A stretch of 32,972 bases of DNA, from IMG/VR virus record IMGVR_UViG_3300047546_000629, positions 1 to 32,972 of that record; one strand, given 5' to 3'. Positions 1 to 19,125 of the stretch are shown here, piece by piece; the first letter of the stretch is position 1; every line of letters begins with the position of its first letter. The notes below the pieces were generated by a model, which did not search any database, was not told the origin of the DNA, and saw only the letters and a list, made by a program, of their open reading frames with translations. The stretch is from a virus. The position numbers were made by a program, and so were the translations under genes.

Positions 1-2726
1 GCCGTCTCATCTAGGCCGCCATCCTTGGCGTAGCGCAGCATGGTTCTGCCGTAGCGATCAGCCTCGGCTTGAATCACGCGCACGAGATCGGCGATCTCAT
101 TTGGCGCATCCTTGAACGCTTCTTGCATGCGCATGAAGTTGACGTTCTTTGATGCCTCTAGCGCATCCACACCCATCTGAGCTTGAATAGCCTCCAGCTT
201 TTCGCTGAAAGAGCCAGACTTCGACAGAATCTTGTTGAATTCGTCGTTACGGGTGGTAACCATGCGCACGTCGAAGACGGCCATTGCGTCGTCCATGTAT
301 TGCGGCGACACATCCATCAGCTCCATCATCTTGCGGAACAGAGAGCGACTGCCTTGGAAGTTGCCCATGATCGGCTGGATGCTTTGCACGATGTCGTGCG
401 CAGTCAGGTTCACACGGTGAGCCTCAACAACGGCAGCCATGATCTCGCCCACGTCTTTGCCAGACGAACGGGCCAAGGTATACCAGCGGTTTACCTCCTG
501 AGCGGCGCGAGACTCGTCCATGCCCATGCGGCTTAGGGCGGTCATGGCTTCTGCGCGTGCAACGCCAGCGTCGCCTGAGCGAGCCACGTCATCAAAGGCG
601 TCAGAGATGGCCTTGCGGGAAGACATTCCTTCCTTCACATCGGGGCCGAACAAGCCAACCAGACGCTCAATCATTGAGTTCTGCTCAGCAGGGGTCGCCT
701 TCTCAAAGCCAGTGCGGATCATGTCGCGGACTGAAGCGATCAGCGCCTCTTGTGATCCTGCGCTGGGGTCGGTCTTGACGCGCTCAATGGCGGCCATGAG
801 CTTGGCCAGGTCTTCGGGAATCTGGGCCTGCTGCTTTTGCATGTCTTGAGCAAGCGCCTCGATCTCCTCTTTGCTGGACTTGCCAGTCTTGGACTGGATA
901 CCGTTTGCGTCAGCGGCGGGCGCAGGCGGCTCTCCGCCTGTCTTGGGCGCAGCATCGCCTGCTGCCATGAGGTCTTCGATGGACATTGCCCCATCAGGAG
1001 CATTCGCAGCGGGCTTGGTGTCAGCGACTCCTGTCTTGACATCGGTCGGGGTGGTGGCCGCTTTTGTTCCAGCCGTCCCTGCCGCCCCCTCCTGCGGGTT
1101 GAATGCGCCGCTCAGGAAGTCGTTGAGGTCAAGACTGGTGTTCTTGGCTGGAGCGCCAGCTGCCGCTGCTGCGGCAGGGTCAACAATGCTTCTAACCTGA
1201 GCGCCGTCTGGAGTGCCAGCTGGAACTGAAAGCGTGCCGTCAGGCAAGACAGTCACGTCAGCGCCAGGAGCGCCAGGAGCGCCACCAGCCAGTGGATCAG
1301 CGCCTGGTGTCTTGGCAGCGGCGGTCGCTGCTGGCGTGGCGGAAGGAGTTGCAGCTCCAGCTGCGGGCGCAGAGCCAGTGCCGCCCTGTGTCTTGGCTGC
1401 CTTCTGCGCCTCAATCGCGGCCAAGCGCTCATCGCCCAGGCGGGCGAGTTCTGCTGCGTAGTCGGCCGCAATCTTGTCGGCTGGCTCCGTGCTTTGCATG
1501 AGCTTGGTGTAGTAACGAGAAGCGGCATCTGCCCGACTTTGGTGGCTGATGGCATCAGCCTCATTGCCAGCCAATCGGGCTGCCTCCGCATCCTTGATGC
1601 GTGCCTGAATGTATTCAGGGGCGTCTTTGAGCAGGTTCAGATTCGCTCTGCTCTCGTTGAGCAAGTCCAGCTTAGGCTGAAGTTTGGGGTCGGCTGCCAC
1701 CTCACCTGGACGCAGCGCGTTAGGAGGGGCGAATGAATCTGCCAGCTTGCTGATCTCGTCGTCGAGCTTGCCAGTGATGCCAGCAAGTTTCGCATTCGTT
1801 AATGAGATGTTGCTGTTTGTAAAGAGCGGGTTAATGGACGTGTAGTCCACGGTAGCTCCAGCGCCGCCAGCACCGCCAGGAGGGACTGGATTGTTGGGGT
1901 CATACTGGGAAAACTTCGGGCCGAGAGAGCCGCCAGTGTCGTAGATGCCCTCCATCCGATTGAACTTGCCGCGCTCGGTGGCAGCGCCATAGCCGCCAAG
2001 GCCGCCGCCGAAGAAGCCGCCAAGCACGCCACCCATAACGCCGCCTTCTGCGGCAGCGCCTAGACCACGGGAGATTGAGTATCCGTTTTGCTGGCCAAGC
2101 TCGATGTCGCGAGCTTGCAGTGCGGCGTCAGTGATAGTGCTGGCGGCAGCGTTGGCAATGCCTTCCTTGATCGCACCTTCCTTTGCCCCAGTCTTAATCC
2201 CTTGCCAAACGACATCTTTGCCGACTTCTTTGCCAGCCTGCACTAGGCCACGCACTACAGATTGGCCAGCTGCTTTTCCGTATGCACCGCCAATCAGGTT
2301 GACGGGATCGAGCAAGACAGATGGAAGAATGTTTCCAAAGAAATGCTTCGCGCCGCCATACTCAGGATCACCCATGAAGTCTGCCGTCTCATAAAGACGC
2401 AGCATGCGAGAGAACATCTTCGCCTGAGGATCGGTCATCCTGTTCGCGGCGATTGCGTCTTTGATGGCTCCGACGGTGTTCAAGTTGCCACGGGTCATGT
2501 CCGTGATGAAGTAGTCTTGAACCTCTTTGGTGTTGGCAAATTGCTTGCCGTGCAGCTGTCCATACAACTGCGCCATGTCATCAAGGACATCTGCTCTATT
2601 GAAAAGTGTGCGCCAATTCCCCTTGTTGATGTCTGTGCCCCAATCAACATTAGGTGTTGGATTGGTAGCGCCAGAGAGGGTGGTGGTAGATGCTGCGGGG
2701 AATAGCTCGTTGAGATTGACGGGCAT
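1..2726 (-). CDS. Large virion/ejection-type protein, C-terminus beyond window
   Basis: The frame is open from an ATG at 2726 to the left edge: 908 complete codons and no stop, so the protein is longer than 908 aa. A GGAG ribosome binding site lies just upstream, inside a hairpin (2729-2779). Visible parts are a mixed N-terminal region with a DPVNLI motif near residue 141, a Gly-rich hydrophobic stretch at about 219-250 that could insert into membrane, a charged helical part at about 310-445, a long Ala/Pro/Gly/Thr-rich linker at about 446-610, and a helical C-terminal part. It is the last gene of the late block, after other large virion-type genes, a position usual for podovirus internal or ejected proteins. 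No transglycosylase or protease motif is seen in the visible part. The role is inferred from size, composition and position; no family is recognised. Confidence 0.75.
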   Translation of the reverse strand, partial: MPVNLNELFPAASTTTLSGATNPTPNVDWGTDINKGNWRTLFNRADVLDDMAQLYGQLHGKQFANTKEVQDYFITDMTRGNLNTVGAIKDAIAANRMTDPQAKMFSRMLRLYETADFMGDPEYGGAKHFFGNILPSVLLDPVNLIGGAYGKAAGQSVVRGLVQAGKEVGKDVVWQGIKTGAKEGAIKEGIANAAASTITDAALQARDIELGQQNGYSISRGLGAAAEGGVMGGVLGGFFGGGLGGYGAATERGKFNRMEGIYDTGGSLGPKFSQYDPNNPVPPGGAGGAGATVDYTSINPLFTNSNISLTNAKLAGITGKLDDEISKLADSFAPPNALRPGEVAADPKLQPKLDLLNESRANLNLLKDAPEYIQARIKDAEAARLAGNEADAISHQSRADAASRYYTKLMQSTEPADKIAADYAAELARLGDERLAAIEAQKAAKTQGGTGSAPAAGAATPSATPAATAAAKTPGADPLAGGAPGAPGADVTVLPDGTLSVPAGTPDGAQVRSIVDPAAAAAAGAPAKNTSLDLNDFLSGAFNPQEGAAGTAGTKAATTPTDVKTGVADTKPAANAPDGAMSIEDLMAAGDAAPKTGGEPPAPAADANGIQSKTGKSSKEEIEALAQDMQKQQAQIPEDLAKLMAAIERVKTDPSAGSQEALIASVRDMIRTGFEKATPAEQNSMIERLVGLFGPDVKEGMSSRKAISDAFDDVARSGDAGVARAEAMTALSRMGMDESRAAQEVNRWYTLARSSGKDVGEIMAAVVEAHRVNLTAHDIVQSIQPIMGNFQGSRSLFRKMMELMDVSPQYMDDAMAVFDVRMVTTRNDEFNKILSKSGSFSEKLEAIQAQMGVDALEASKNVNFMRMQEAFKDAPNEIADLVRVIQAEADRYGRTMLRYAKDGGLDET

Positions 2727-15127: not shown

Positions 15128-16525
15128 CTATGCTCCACAAGACTCTTGTTTCAACATAACGACTTTGGGTCTCTTCTTCATCCATGCTGCCTTACCCTGG
15201 TTGTGCATGATCGACGGATCGATGACTGAGACCTCTGTGCTGGATTCAAAACGAATTCCAGCTGGATTTTTAACCTTGACCAACACCATGTTGGTCGAGT
15301 GAAACAAACCAATGGCCAACAAGGCAAGGTTGTAAGCAAAGCTGTTGTCACATGCCTTCTCCCAAAGAGCGTCCTCAAGGAACATGCACGCCCCCTGGCA
15401 CAGCTGTAAGACTGGGCACTGCGGGCACTCCTTGCGGGTTGACCAGTGATGAACAGTATTGACTGACACGGCGTCCAAGTCGTCCATATTTCCCAACTTG
15501 TGGCGGGTCTCGCTGCTGGTGTTCTGGCATGTCAAGACATTGCCGCCCATGTCTACGGCCACGTTGTCTTGGCGATCCATCCCGCACTTCTGTCCCAAGA
15601 CATAGCTGGGCCTATGGTTGGTCACACTGGTGAGGAAGTCCTTGATTTTTCCTGCCAGAGACGGCATGGCGACACCCGTGATGCCCTCATAAAAGACCGT
15701 GTGCATCAGCATTGCGGCGTCCATCTCGTCTTGAAGACCGACGGAAACGGCGTTGTCGTCGTAGGCCAACAGGATTTCTTCCGTGGTCACGGGCACATCC
15801 TCTGGGGCCACGCCGAGATGATGGCCGATGTATTCCTTGACCTCCTTGATGGAGTAATGGCGACCAGTCAAGACACAGTTGAAGCCAATCTTCCCGCTTG
15901 GGTGCAGCTGATCGTAGGCGTATTTGACCCACGGCAGGATGTCTTTGTCTTTGAGCGGGTCTTGGCCTCGGTTCTCTTCGTAGCCAGGGCCGTCATGGCT
16001 GATGCCGACCTGAAACCCAAGCGAGACAAGCCAGTCCACCTTGTCTTTGTCGAACAGGCTGGCGTTGGTGATGATGTTGAACTCAGCCTTTGGGTAGGCT
16101 GCACGCACCTTCTCGGCCAGAGGCTTGAGGGTTTTCCAGTAGACAAACGGCTCGCCGCCCCAGAATTCGATGCGCTTGCCTTCGCCGTCGCCAAGGTTGA
16201 ACCACGTCTGAAACTTGTCAAAGAACGCGTCAACCTCCTTGGGGCTGCCATCGTAATCGTGCGGCTGCGCAGCCTGGTTGCAATAGGAGCAAGCGTAGTT
16301 GCACTTGAGGCCAAGCTGGATTTTGATGACCTTCGCATCACGCGACTTCTTCCCAGGCATGTCTGGCGACACGATGGTGGCAGCCTCCCAATTCATGTCT
16401 TGAGCAAACCTGAACTGATTCACTTGGAACTTCTCACCGTCGTCCCAATACATCTCGTTGAAGTGAGGCTCGTAATGAATGTGGCGGACTTGGCCTTCAG
16501 GGCCGACAAGTTCTAGTTCATACAT
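15128..16525 (-). CDS. Radical SAM/SPASM enzyme, anSME-like maturase
   Basis: The start is the ATG at 16525, overlapping the upstream stop by 8 bases; this gives 465 aa. The radical SAM cluster motif is C75-x3-C79-x2-C82, followed by GGEP at 123-126 (SAM amine contact) and a later GISHDGP at 174-180, as in anaerobic sulfatase-maturing and related peptide-modifying enzymes. The C-terminus has a complete SPASM pattern: C314-x13-G-x4-C333, then C367-x2-C370-x5-C376-x3-C380-x11-C392, which would hold two more Fe-S clusters. Such enzymes make radical changes to Cys, Ser or backbone positions in peptides and proteins (formylglycine, thioether bonds, epimers). The neighbouring Cys-rich Hint protein is the obvious candidate substrate. 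No small RiPP precursor, transporter or RRE domain is seen nearby. Confidence 0.9.
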   Translation of the reverse strand: MYELELVGPEGQVRHIHYEPHFNEMYWDDGEKFQVNQFRFAQDMNWEAATIVSPDMPGKKSRDAKVIKIQLGLKCNYACSYCNQAAQPHDYDGSPKEVDAFFDKFQTWFNLGDGEGKRIEFWGGEPFVYWKTLKPLAEKVRAAYPKAEFNIITNASLFDKDKVDWLVSLGFQVGISHDGPGYEENRGQDPLKDKDILPWVKYAYDQLHPSGKIGFNCVLTGRHYSIKEVKEYIGHHLGVAPEDVPVTTEEILLAYDDNAVSVGLQDEMDAAMLMHTVFYEGITGVAMPSLAGKIKDFLTSVTNHRPSYVLGQKCGMDRQDNVAVDMGGNVLTCQNTSSETRHKLGNMDDLDAVSVNTVHHWSTRKECPQCPVLQLCQGACMFLEDALWEKACDNSFAYNLALLAIGLFHSTNMVLVKVKNPAGIRFESSTEVSVIDPSIMHNQGKAAWMKKRPKVVMLKQESCGA

Positions 16526-17240
16526 AGTGTGTGGTGTAGAGAGTTTGGGAATCGTCACGCTGGCCAACAAACGAAGGTTGGCGGGCGCTACGGACAAATG
16601 GCAAATCGCCAAAGGCCATTCTATGTTCGTGCATCACGATGAATTCGCATGAAATCATCACGCGCTCACCGCCAGAAAAGAATGTTTCACTCTCATGCCA
16701 CACAGTAGCTGGGTGGCAATGCCACATCCCAGTTTCTGTTTGCAGTCGTTTGCTCTTGTTGTTGAACGGATATTGCTGCGCTGGGCGCGGGTCGATCACA
16801 ACAAAGCGGCCAGCCTCGTTGGTCTTGAAGTCTGGTTTCGCGCCGTCACCCATGTCAGCATAAAACGTGGAAACGAAATCGCAGCCGTGGTGGTAGTGCG
16901 GCCTGATACGCTGTCCGTAGTGATAGATGTTGGCAAACGCCCGCACCTTGACTGGCGTGTCCCAAATGAATGGGTCTTGGAATCCGCACCAAACATAGTC
17001 GCGGAATCTGGCGGCCACGATGTCTCTGAACTTGCACATAGTTTGATCCTCATTGAAGAGATCAAACATGTTGTAGTAGCCATTGCGCTCGTAGAAGTGG
17101 CCAGTTGGCGAGTGCAGCTTCTCAGCTTCTCTTGCCAACTCGCACAGTCGCGTTAGCTCTTCCTGGCTCAAGTCCAGGCGCTCAGACCACATTGGGGTCT
17201 CCCAATTGTGGGTCAAACACTCGTAAACGCTTTGCATCAC
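16518..17240 (-). CDS. 2OG-Fe(II) oxygenase-like protein (240 aa)
   Basis: ATG at 17240, overlapping the preceding stop by 4 bases. The region from about residue 100 to 200 fits a double-stranded beta-helix oxygenase of the TIGR02466-like, phage-common type: a His cluster RPHYHHGCDFVSTFYAD with H115, H117, H118 and D121 as candidate iron ligands, a FVVIDPR strand (146-152), and a distal WHESETFFSGGERVMIS with H182 as second iron His and R193 as the likely 2-oxoglutarate carboxylate contact. Such enzymes hydroxylate amino acid side chains or other substrates using oxygen and 2-oxoglutarate. It is coupled to the radical SAM gene, so both may act on the same protein. Assignment is by motif reading; the exact ligands are uncertain. 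Confidence 0.72.
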   Translation of the reverse strand: MMQSVYECLTHNWETPMWSERLDLSQEELTRLCELAREAEKLHSPTGHFYERNGYYNMFDLFNEDQTMCKFRDIVAARFRDYVWCGFQDPFIWDTPVKVRAFANIYHYGQRIRPHYHHGCDFVSTFYADMGDGAKPDFKTNEAGRFVVIDPRPAQQYPFNNKSKRLQTETGMWHCHPATVWHESETFFSGGERVMISCEFIVMHEHRMAFGDLPFVRSARQPSFVGQRDDSQTLYTTHYV

Positions 17241-18184
17241 GATACCGTGAAGTTTGCGTCTGCAAGACCAGTCATCAGTCGGAATCCGACTTTGACCTTG
17301 AATTGATCTCCAGTTTCTAAGCCAAGCGCCTTGACCTTGAACGACCCAGCGCCGTTTGTGATCGCCACGCGAGTCAACGGCAGGTATCCGCCAGTTGCCT
17401 CAAGGAACAGCTCACAATCTCTTGTCAACACTTCGTCCGTCTCAATGTTCACCACATTGACGGTGACGGTCGCAGTGCCGTCTGGGGCGATGGTCGCAGG
17501 ATGTTGCACAGTCACACCAGGTAACAGAATAGGCTCAACCAAGCAGGTGTAGTCAAGCGGCTCCCAGTCGGACAGATTGCTCGTGAAGCCAAGCATGGCG
17601 CTATGGCGCAGAACAATCGAGCATTTGGTGAAGTCGTCGCCAGCAAAAGGCTTGAACACGGTGACAATGGGTTGACCGTCCATGATGCTTGATGCGCGAT
17701 ATGAGATCGCCTTGCGGTTCATGTTCTCGACAGTCACGGTCATGGACGGGCGAGGATAGCCGTCGCGATCCATACCAATGACATAGATCAGGCAGTCACC
17801 GACTTCCCATCCGCCTTTGTTGGTGCGCTGTTGGTCGAATGTTCGATTCAAGAAAATGCGCGACGCGCCAATCTTTGCAAACACCTTCCCAGCGTGTTGA
17901 GGTGCAAGCGTGCCACCATCAACAATCAAGCGCTCACGGTCATAGCGCTCGATGTCGTGGGCATACATCGAAGTGTTGGTGTAGCCAGGGTTATCTTGAA
18001 CTTCAATGTCTGGGTTGTTGAACGCTTTGTTCAACGTCATCTCTCCAACCCACACACCATCAGACTCTAGGCGGCAGCGCTCATAAGAGTGGACGGTAAT
18101 GACTTCTGGTTGAACGTCGAGATGGTAGAAGATTGGATACTTCTCTCTCGGCATTGCATAGTGTTTGACGGGCATTTGGGCCAT
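17237..18184 (-). CDS. Virion-type protein with C-terminal Ig-like domain
   Basis: 315 aa, start in a one-base TAATG overlap with the Hint gene stop. Residues 1 to about 215 are mixed beta sequence without a recognised motif (landmarks VIYVIGMDRDGYPRPS-like strand near 140-155 and FKPFAGDDFTKCSIVLRHS near 190). From about 222 to the end the pattern of TVQHPATIAPDGTATVTVNV, a central TGGYLPLTRVAITNGAGSF and a final KVKVGFRLM strand fits an Ig-like beta-sandwich, as often found on phage surface proteins. It lies between the Hint protein and the two modifying enzymes and may be a virion surface partner or a second substrate. Function unknown. Confidence 0.65.
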   Translation of the reverse strand: MAQMPVKHYAMPREKYPIFYHLDVQPEVITVHSYERCRLESDGVWVGEMTLNKAFNNPDIEVQDNPGYTNTSMYAHDIERYDRERLIVDGGTLAPQHAGKVFAKIGASRIFLNRTFDQQRTNKGGWEVGDCLIYVIGMDRDGYPRPSMTVTVENMNRKAISYRASSIMDGQPIVTVFKPFAGDDFTKCSIVLRHSAMLGFTSNLSDWEPLDYTCLVEPILLPGVTVQHPATIAPDGTATVTVNVVNIETDEVLTRDCELFLEATGGYLPLTRVAITNGAGSFKVKALGLETGDQFKVKVGFRLMTGLADANFTVS

Positions 18185-19125
18185 TACTCGGCTCCTTTCT
18201 CAGTCATCGACTCCAAGACAACGCCGTTTGCGTGCCATGTCTTGTTGCCTCCAACATCAACCGTGTAGAGCGTCTCTTTGCCAGTCATCACAGAGTCGAT
18301 GAAGAACACGCGAGTCATTCGTCCATCGATCAAGATGGAGTCGCCGACATTAAGTTGTGCAAGACCTTCAACAGCTACGCTCGGCTCCTTGCCAGTGCGT
18401 TCTTTGTATTTCTCAGCAAACGCTTTGTAGCCATCAAGACTCACGGCCACCCAATTCTTGCCGTTGTAAACGAGGTGTTCGCCAGTAACTCTGATTTGAT
18501 TGTTGATGGTGTAGGTGACTTCATGTTCGCCAACATGGCACTCAACAACTCGAAGAATCTTGTTCTTCTTGTCATCAAGGCCAAGGACTACGTCGCCAGC
18601 TTTCAAGTCTTGAACATTGGATAGCGTTCCGTCACCGAGCTTGACTTTTGTTCCTTCAGGAACAGAGCATGTGCAATTACAAGCGCAGTTACAGTTGCAA
18701 TTCGTGTAGCAGTTCCATGATCCGCAGTTGCAGTTGCGCAAAGTGCGCTGATAGCGGTCAACCCCGTCACGCGTTTCGATCAAGCTGTATGAGCTGTAGA
18801 TGTATGACTGAGGCCAACCGAACGTGCAGTTGCCATACGATGCGCCAGACGCCCAGCTATACAAGTTGTTAGAACAGTTAGCGTTGCCAGCACCTTGCTG
18901 GCAATTGCCTCCAGGAACTCCACTGATGCCCCAAGTCCACCAGTTTCCATTGGGCATGTCCCAAAACACGTTGCCAGCGCAGTTGCCGTTTGGGATCGAG
19001 CCAGTGCAGTTTGCAACACGCACATCTTCATAGGTTGCGCGACGAGGACGGTTTCCCTGCTCCAACTCGTCCGCAACCCGAAACCCAAGACTGTCTTGGA
19101 TTACAGGGTTACGAATGATTGTCAT
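18184..19125 (-). CDS. Cys-rich protein with C-terminal Hint (hedgehog/intein) domain
   Basis: 313 aa, ATG at 19125 behind AAGGAG. Residues 1-152 are rich in Asn, Gly, Trp, Tyr and Cys (13 Cys before residue 153), ending in a tract where Cys alternates with Asn, Ala or Thr (132-153). C153 begins a Hint domain: CSVPEGTKV (block A, with C153 as the expected nucleophile), a DLKAGDVVLGLD turn (173-184), RVTGEHLVY (212-220, block B with T214 and H217), and YTVDVGGNKTWHANGVVLES (287-306, block F). The family's final His-Asn is replaced by Glu-Ser and no C-extein follows, so splicing is not expected, while N-terminal cleavage or ligation through a thioester at C153 remains possible, as in hedgehog proteins. 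Its downstream partners are coupled in one run. The biological role is unknown. Confidence 0.85.
   Translation of the reverse strand: MTIIRNPVIQDSLGFRVADELEQGNRPRRATYEDVRVANCTGSIPNGNCAGNVFWDMPNGNWWTWGISGVPGGNCQQGAGNANCSNNLYSWASGASYGNCTFGWPQSYIYSSYSLIETRDGVDRYQRTLRNCNCGSWNCYTNCNCNCACNCTCSVPEGTKVKLGDGTLSNVQDLKAGDVVLGLDDKKNKILRVVECHVGEHEVTYTINNQIRVTGEHLVYNGKNWVAVSLDGYKAFAEKYKERTGKEPSVAVEGLAQLNVGDSILIDGRMTRVFFIDSVMTGKETLYTVDVGGNKTWHANGVVLESMTEKGAE

What the first reader, a model, noticed from the sequence alone, without database searches (positions are those of the whole stretch)
18184..18669. Hint domain without the terminal His-Asn or C-extein
C153, T214 and H217 of the N-terminal cleavage half are present, but the usual terminal HN is replaced by ES within a short tail. 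Splicing and C-terminal cleavage are therefore unlikely, while thioester formation at C153 and release or transfer of the N-terminal domain (as in hedgehog) are still possible. The Hint domain begins at the last Cys of the Asn-Cys tract, so cleavage would free that tract with an activated C-terminus that could be joined to a nucleophile on the virion or host.
Basis: partly seen in the sequence, partly recalled or inferred. Interest (0 to 1): 0.72.

Follow-up and report, generated by a model that had tools for sequence, protein, structure and literature searches.

The report
Self-cleaving cap on phage fibre tip
A phage protein whose end is a chain of alternating asparagine and cysteine carries an intein-like domain that looks able to cut itself off but not to splice; related phage fibres lack this domain and simply stop after the chain, which suggests the domain is a removable cap on a fibre tip that neighbouring enzymes probably modify chemically.

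Summary
The finding is real, with one correction. Window 18184-19125 (minus strand, 313 aa) ends in a Hint domain: AlphaFold pLDDT 85.8; intein, BIL and hedgehog structures match at Z 15-20. T214 and H217 are in place and the terminal His-Asn is E305-S306. But C153 is not the nucleophile: spacing to the GT motif and structural superposition put SER154 at the Cys1 position. The nearest relative also has Ser; 14 of 16 aligned members have Cys.

The Asn-Cys tract belongs to a widespread, apparently undescribed phage module: fibre-type proteins ending in CNCNCN tracts next to a radical SAM/SPASM enzyme (phrog_1802), often with an unnamed ~315-aa gene and a 2OG oxygenase or second radical SAM. The domain before the window's tract occurs in 30 non-redundant proteins: 22 stop at the tract, 8 carry the Hint. 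All 16 aligned Hints lack the terminal HN.

Best explanation: an N-cleavage-only Hint acting as a self-removing C-terminal cap; its acyl shift exposes the tract as C-terminus, as in uncapped homologues. Cleavage, tract chemistry and any ligation are inferred. Transfer to a virion or host nucleophile is possible but unsupported.

The parts
18184..19125 (-). Gene of the 313-aa protein: fibre-tip-type domain, Asn-Cys tract, Hint cap
   Evidence: ORF and translation
18667..19092 (-). Residues 12-153: domain shared with the C-terminal part of fibre-type proteins, ending in the tract
   Evidence: phmmer matches, 30 non-redundant proteins of 66 ORFs; alignment A5
18667..18735 (-). Asn-Cys tract, residues 131-153 (NCNCGSWNCYTNCNCNCACNCTC)
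   Evidence: translation; family composition
18208..18666 (-). Hint domain, residues 154-306, followed by a 7-residue tail
   Evidence: AlphaFold model, structure comparison, alignment A4
18664..18666 (-). Ser154 codon: residue at the Cys1 (nucleophile) position
   Evidence: superposition on 1at0 residue 258 and intein residue 1; spacing to GT
18475..18486 (-). Block B, T214-G-E-H217
   Evidence: His in 16 of 16 aligned members
18208..18213 (-). E305-S306 in place of the terminal His-Asn
   Evidence: HN absent in 16 of 16
17237..18184 (-). Gene X, 315 aa, no Pfam or PHROGs family; overlaps the stop of the Hint gene
   Evidence: present between tract gene and enzyme in 89 of 167 loci
16518..17240 (-). 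2OG-Fe(II) oxygenase (PF13759, phrog_81)
15128..16612 (-). Radical SAM/SPASM protein (phrog_1802); first ATG (M30, MYEL) at 16525
   Evidence: CNYACSYC and the full SPASM cysteine pattern

Best explanation
The domain is a Hint (hedgehog/intein) autoprocessing domain reduced to the N-terminal half-reaction, and it serves as a self-removing C-terminal cap on an Asn-Cys tract at the tip of a phage fibre-type protein. The residue at position 1 (Ser154 here, Cys in most relatives), helped by the T-x-x-H block, would attack the peptide bond after C153; the resulting (thio)ester would be hydrolysed or captured by a small nucleophile, so that the tract becomes the chain's C-terminus, as in homologues encoded without a cap. 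The tract is most likely the substrate of the adjacent radical SAM/SPASM enzyme, and here perhaps of the 2OG oxygenase; the cap would cover the tract until modification or assembly is done. Shown here: fold, residue positions, loss of HN, tract-cap junction, capped and uncapped homologues, gene neighbourhood, purifying selection on the Hint in relatives. Inferred: cleavage, its timing, the chemistry on the tract, and the tip location.
For: Hint fold with position 1 and block B placed as in inteins and hedgehog. HN missing in 16 of 16 aligned members, block-B His kept in 16 of 16. Control: of CFPAGT Hints found by DNA pattern, 6 of 6 preceded by a tract lack HN, 79 of 90 without a tract have it (Fisher p 1.3e-5). 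The Hint starts directly at the tract in 15 of 16. The same domain before the tract: 22 of 30 proteins end at the tract (at most 22 residues beyond the matched region), 8 of 30 have the Hint; three other fibre types also have capped and uncapped members. The capped state needs at least 4 changes on the domain tree and one capped clade is rejected (AU p 0.0045). dN/dS over the Hint 0.08-0.31 in the six groups of closer pairs. Tract-pattern loci with >= 4.5 kb downstream carry the radical SAM gene in 34 of 36.
Against: No cleavage has been observed. The window has Ser, not Cys, at position 1, and lacks the NX-motif His that PMC10189870 (passages) reports for Ser1 inteins: its extra His residues (197, 201) are not after Arg/Lys and L153, the other Ser member, has no His in the Hint besides block B. 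So this copy may be slow or dead. In four members block B reads AGAH or AGGH without Thr. An HN-less Hint also ends a Providencia phage protein with no tract and no radical SAM annotated in the 12.5 kb seen, and L099 has a Hint without a tract before it, so the Hint is not tied to the tract in every case. Tip location rests on homology to fibre proteins; the tip-domain model was poor. Tree result has long branches, and starred branches alone force only one change.
Confidence: 0.5

Rival explanations
1. Hedgehog-like transfer: the (thio)ester is not hydrolysed but passed to a nucleophile (an amine or thiol of another virion protein, a lipid, or a cysteine within the tract, giving a macro-thiolactone), so the cap is an acyl-transfer device.
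For: Hedgehog is a close structural match (Z 15); the activated C-terminus would lie next to many tract cysteines.
Against: No sterol-recognition or other acceptor-binding extension: only 7 residues follow the Hint in the window. Uncapped homologues reach the same end without an activated intermediate.
Confidence: 0.17
2. The Hint is a non-cleaving relic or a folding/recognition domain, for instance a docking handle for the radical SAM enzyme, kept for binding rather than for chemistry.
For: Ser at position 1 without an NX His in the window pair; Thr of block B lost in 8 of 16 members (Ser in 4, Ala in 4).
Against: Position 1 is always Cys or Ser and block-B His is invariant in 16 of 16; most tract proteins beside the same enzyme family have no Hint (111 of 140 tracts end within 10 residues of the C-terminus), so it is not needed for recognition.
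Confidence: 0.2
3. C153 itself is the nucleophile, with S154 as an inserted residue.
For: C153 is present and MAFFT leaves the gap placement around C153/S154 open.
Against: Spacing to the GT motif and structural superposition on inteins and hedgehog place S154 at position 1.
Confidence: 0.06
4. An ordinary intein or split-intein half that still splices with a partner elsewhere.
For: Inteins are the largest group of structural matches.
Against: No C-extein and no terminal Asn; the model covers the complete fold to the end; homologues lack any sequence that a C-extein would supply.
Confidence: 0.02

Closest known systems
Hedgehog C-terminal autoprocessing domain (Hog; 1at0)
   Same: Hint fold, T-x-x-H block, no terminal Asn step, domain at the C-terminus of a secreted-type substrate (hedgehog features recalled)
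   Different: Ser at position 1 in this copy; no sterol-binding extension; the substrate is a phage fibre-type protein with an Asn-Cys end
Bacterial intein-like (BIL) domains and the Tetrahymena BUBL BIL2 (6y75)
   Same: Closest solved structure (Z 19.7); BILs mainly cleave because they lack the +1 nucleophile (PMC7664689, passages)
   Different: BIL2 (described as C1A-N143A) has a terminal Asn; here HN is gone in 16 of 16
Ser1 inteins (e.g. PolB16, Aes PolB1 9hth)
   Same: Ser at position 1 (title of 9hth)
   Different: They splice and have the NX His; the window pair does not
Intramolecular chaperone autocleavage domains of phage tailspikes (peptidase S74)
   Same: Self-removing C-terminal domain of a phage fibre (abstracts; role recalled)
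   Different: Unrelated fold and chemistry; works like it at most, not a member
Achromobacter phage JWF gp28, annotated Hom_end-associated Hint family protein
   Same: Fibre-type protein with NCNCDCNCNC tract, Hint without HN, gene next to phrog_1802 radical SAM
   Different: Cys at position 1; a different 240-aa gene in between; different fibre N-terminal domain
His-Xaa-Ser and ranthipeptide (PapB) radical SAM systems
   Same: Repeat- or Cys-rich substrate next to a SPASM radical SAM; such maturases are the enzyme's best NCBIfam relatives; some loci have two radical SAM genes
   Different: All matches far below NCBIfam equivalog cut-offs; the substrate is a phage fibre-type protein with Asn-Cys repeats

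Membership tests
Hint superfamily | HINT fold | tested here: met
   pLDDT 85.8 model; Z 12-20 to inteins, BIL, hedgehog
Hint superfamily | Nucleophile (Cys/Ser) at position 1 and block-B His | tested here: met
   S154, H217; Cys 14 and Ser 2 of 16, His 16 of 16
Hint superfamily | N-terminal acyl shift activity | not testable with these tools
   needs protein
Intein (class 1) | Terminal His-Asn and +1 nucleophile with a C-extein | tested here: not met
   E305-S306, 7-residue tail, 16 of 16 members lack HN
Hedgehog (Hog) domain | Cys at position 1 | tested here: not met
   Ser154 in the window; Cys in 14 of 16 relatives
Hedgehog (Hog) domain | Sterol-recognition region after the Hint | tested here: not met
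   7 residues follow S306
Bacterial intein-like domain (type A/B) | Terminal Asn | tested here: not met
   that BILs have it is recalled and from the BIL2 title
Radical SAM/SPASM enzyme (the neighbour) | CxxxCxxC and SPASM cysteines | tested here: met
   window has both; CxxxCxxC in 187 of 187 distinct full-length relatives, SPASM pattern in 177 of 187
A named RiPP maturase family (PapB, HxsB, CcpM, geopeptide) | NCBIfam curated cut-off | tested here: not met
   best scores 65 bits (window) and 80 bits (L003) against equivalog-type cut-offs of 340-520; only the SPASM domain model TIGR04085 is passed
Peptidase S74 / ICA cap | S74 Pfam match | tested here: not met
   no such family listed for the protein

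The most novel reading that the evidence does not exclude
Phage fibre tips are made by a RiPP-like pathway: a SPASM radical SAM enzyme (with a 2OG oxygenase or a second radical SAM) rewrites the Asn-Cys tip while the Hint cap holds the C-terminus as a C-terminal 'leader'; the cap then leaves by handing its acyl group to a tract cysteine or a neighbouring fibre chain, closing the tip covalently.
Probability: 0.13. Interest if true: 0.9.

Novelty: new variant of a known kind. Interest (0 to 1): 0.68.

Why it matters
Hint domains are known from inteins, hedgehog and BIL proteins. Capped and uncapped homologues make the purpose of the Asn-Cys end directly testable, and cultured examples exist (Achromobacter phages JWF and 2-1; the Burkholderia paludis MSh1 genome) for virion proteomics.

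Tried and rejected
Close relatives of P0001 in viral contigs by peptide pattern: none confirmed; tblastn in phages gave one weak hit, which led to the Achromobacter phages. True intein in a fibre gene: rejected, no C-extein and no HN. Split-intein half: rejected, the model covers the whole fold. Fold of the fibre-tip domain (A5): model too poor to use (pLDDT 46.6). Cys-to-formylglycine by an anaerobic-sulfatase-maturase-type enzyme: considered; the enzyme matches that family far below cut-off; undecided.

Caveats on counts. The regex for HN also fires on a CHN in L217, L219, L220 and L222, but that lies in the turn before the last strand, not at the end. In the Fisher count ORFs with under 110 aa after CFPAGT, open-ended ORFs without HN, and repeats of the same first 60 residues were dropped. 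The NC-pattern scan gave 120 stretches; 86 had the motif NCNCxCNC in an ORF of >= 50 aa and 65 of these 86 showed a radical SAM gene; 34 of 36 is for those with >= 4.5 kb downstream, the 2 misses being 53- and 61-aa ORFs. In genome contigs 54 of 80 radical SAM loci showed a CxCxCxC ORF nearby, a looser test that also counts a few Cys-rich ORFs without Asn. In one search, 63 of 230 loci showed no tract upstream in view. In one search, 36 of 66 ORFs were dropped as near-copies. Alignment A5 holds 28 of the 30 (L219 and L220 left out, added back for the tree). A4 holds 16 Hints; L002 and L008 (annotated phages) and L437 were left out of A4 but show the same features.

Literature: ten searches listed no paper whose title or abstract start describes this module; subscription papers and most preprints are not held, so 'undescribed' means only not found there. 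Of PMC10189870, PMC7664689, PMC3556154 and PMC10783043 I read found passages; all other papers only as search listings.

Full report
1. What is there. The window is a virus record of 32,972 bases with an SU10-type major capsid protein and portal. The gene at 18184-19125 (minus) encodes 313 aa: an N-terminal region with Asn-Cys motifs, a tract ending NCNCNCACNCTC at C153, then 160 residues. Its stop overlaps the start of a 315-aa gene; a 2OG-Fe(II) oxygenase and a radical SAM/SPASM protein of phrog_1802 follow on the same strand, closely packed.

2. The Hint domain is real. Pfam scores for the window alone are under their cut-offs. But 15 of 16 aligned relatives match Hom_end_hint at E <= 0.01, the profile finds PI-SceI, Prp8 and BIL2 sequences in the PDB, and AlphaFold gives pLDDT 85.8, pTM 0.79. 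Structure comparison returns BIL2 6y75 (Z 19.7, rmsd 1.9, 141 residues), gp41-1 intein 6riz (Z 16.5, 1.7, 122) and hedgehog 1at0 (Z 15.0, 1.9, 123). Viral models matched include several named Hint proteins of uncultured Caudovirales phages and one named for collagen repeats.

3. Register. Model residue 1 is C143, so 12 is S154. Alignments to 1at0 and 6tyy run 12..165 on 258..401, and to the RecA inteins 12..164 on 1..440; Cys258 of hedgehog, and Cys1 and Asn440 of the RecA intein, are the catalytic residues (recalled). Hence S154 holds position 1, E305-S306 replace His-Asn, and C153 is residue -1. Sequence spacing agrees: C-FPAGT and C-VPAGT in homologues, S-VPEGT and S-LAKGT in the window and L153. 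Ser1 inteins exist and work (passages of PMC10189870), but their NX histidine is not found here.

4. Family. Sixteen Hints were aligned (A4): Cys at position 1 in 14, Ser in 2; block-B His in 16; the residue three before it is Thr in 8, Ser in 4, Ala in 4; terminal HN in none. Fifteen have a Cys-rich tract directly before the Hint; L099 does not. In two DNA-pattern scans for CFPAGT Hints, tract-preceded ones lacked HN in 6 of 6, and others had it in 79 of 90. Omega over the Hint coding region (NG86) is 0.08 (L238/L418), 0.10 (L442/L002), 0.09-0.17 (L217, L219, L220, L222), 0.19 (L430/L437; L238/L429), 0.25 (L418/L429) and 0.31 (L008/L002, L442/L008); more distant pairs reach 0.71 with high synonymous divergence; window/L153 is 0.27 at dS 2.0. 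So the domain is under selection in relatives; for the window itself that is weak evidence.

5. Capped and uncapped homologues. Residues 12-153 of the window match the C-terminal part of 66 ORFs (E <= 1e-5; two of them are copies of the window's own), 30 after removing near-copies: 22 have at most 22 residues after the matched region, most 0-8; 8 (window included) carry the Hint there, 157-214 residues long from position 1 (alignment A5). One uncapped member, L129, starts with a T7 tail-fibre N-terminal domain and collagen repeats. Three other fibre types have capped and uncapped members: the JWF type, the L430 type (L248 aligns through its tract and stops) and the L050 type (neighbouring genes). 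On the domain tree the capped state needs at least 4 changes (bootstrap 3-4) and a single capped clade is rejected (AU p 0.0045), with the caveats that the window, L275 and L131 are long branches and that starred branches alone force only one change.

6. The module. Scanning by the enzyme confirmed 547 relatives in viral contigs, 80 kept, and 90 in genomes, 80 kept, titles including Limnohabitans, Rhodobacteraceae and Burkholderia. In 140 distinct tracts beside the enzyme the residues between cysteines are Asn 66%, Ala 14%, Asp 13% of 602, and 111 of 140 tracts end within 10 residues of the C-terminus. Between tract gene and enzyme: gene X in 89, 2OG oxygenase in 31, a second radical SAM in 19, the JWF gp29 type in 7, and none of these in 59 of 167 loci (the second-radical-SAM profile also cross-matches the main enzyme, so that count rests on position).

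7. Mechanism. The residues for the first Hint step are present in a conserved form, those for later steps are gone, and homologues show what the chain looks like without the domain: it ends at the tract. The simplest reading is a self-removing cap. Why a cap is useful is unknown; holding the tract until the radical SAM enzyme has acted, or until the fibre has assembled, are the natural guesses. Transfer of the acyl group is possible but nothing here points to an acceptor. The chemistry on the tract is inferred only from the neighbour's family: its best NCBIfam relatives are peptide maturases, all below cut-off. The window's own copy may be slow or inactive because it has Ser without the helper His of Ser1 inteins.

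8. Novelty. The fold and half-reaction are known; I found no description of this use (searches listed in Tried and rejected). JWF gp28 is annotated 'Hom_end-associated Hint family protein', so the domain has been noticed there, though its link to the tract and enzyme is not in that annotation.

Noticed in passing
L016, L025, L034, L059, L067, L087, L095, L105, L120, L121 (coordinates): Another C-terminal extension of about 165-175 aa (SKIICAKL...), not Hint-like by eye and without a Pfam hit for L087, follows the tract in these loci; possibly an alternative cap or anchor.
   Followed up: partly
window 17237-18184: Gene X, 315 aa, has no Pfam or PHROGs match but relatives lie between tract gene and radical SAM gene in 89 of 167 loci.
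   Followed up: partly
L129 6980-7987; L275 6907-7977: A second, shorter radical SAM gene precedes the main one in these and other loci (19 of 167), reminiscent of the two-enzyme His-Xaa-Ser systems (recalled).
   Followed up: partly
L086, L089, L126, L185, L202: Three consecutive short genes (about 92-115 aa), each ending in an Asn-Cys tract.
   Followed up: no
L204 5551-6504 (Providencia phage PSTNGR1): HN-less Hint at the C-terminus of a 317-aa protein without tract and without an annotated radical SAM neighbour in the stretch seen.
   Followed up: partly
L003 9395-9811: Free-standing 138-aa Asn-Cys protein 16 bp before the radical SAM gene, with no Hint: a minimal form of the system.
   Followed up: partly
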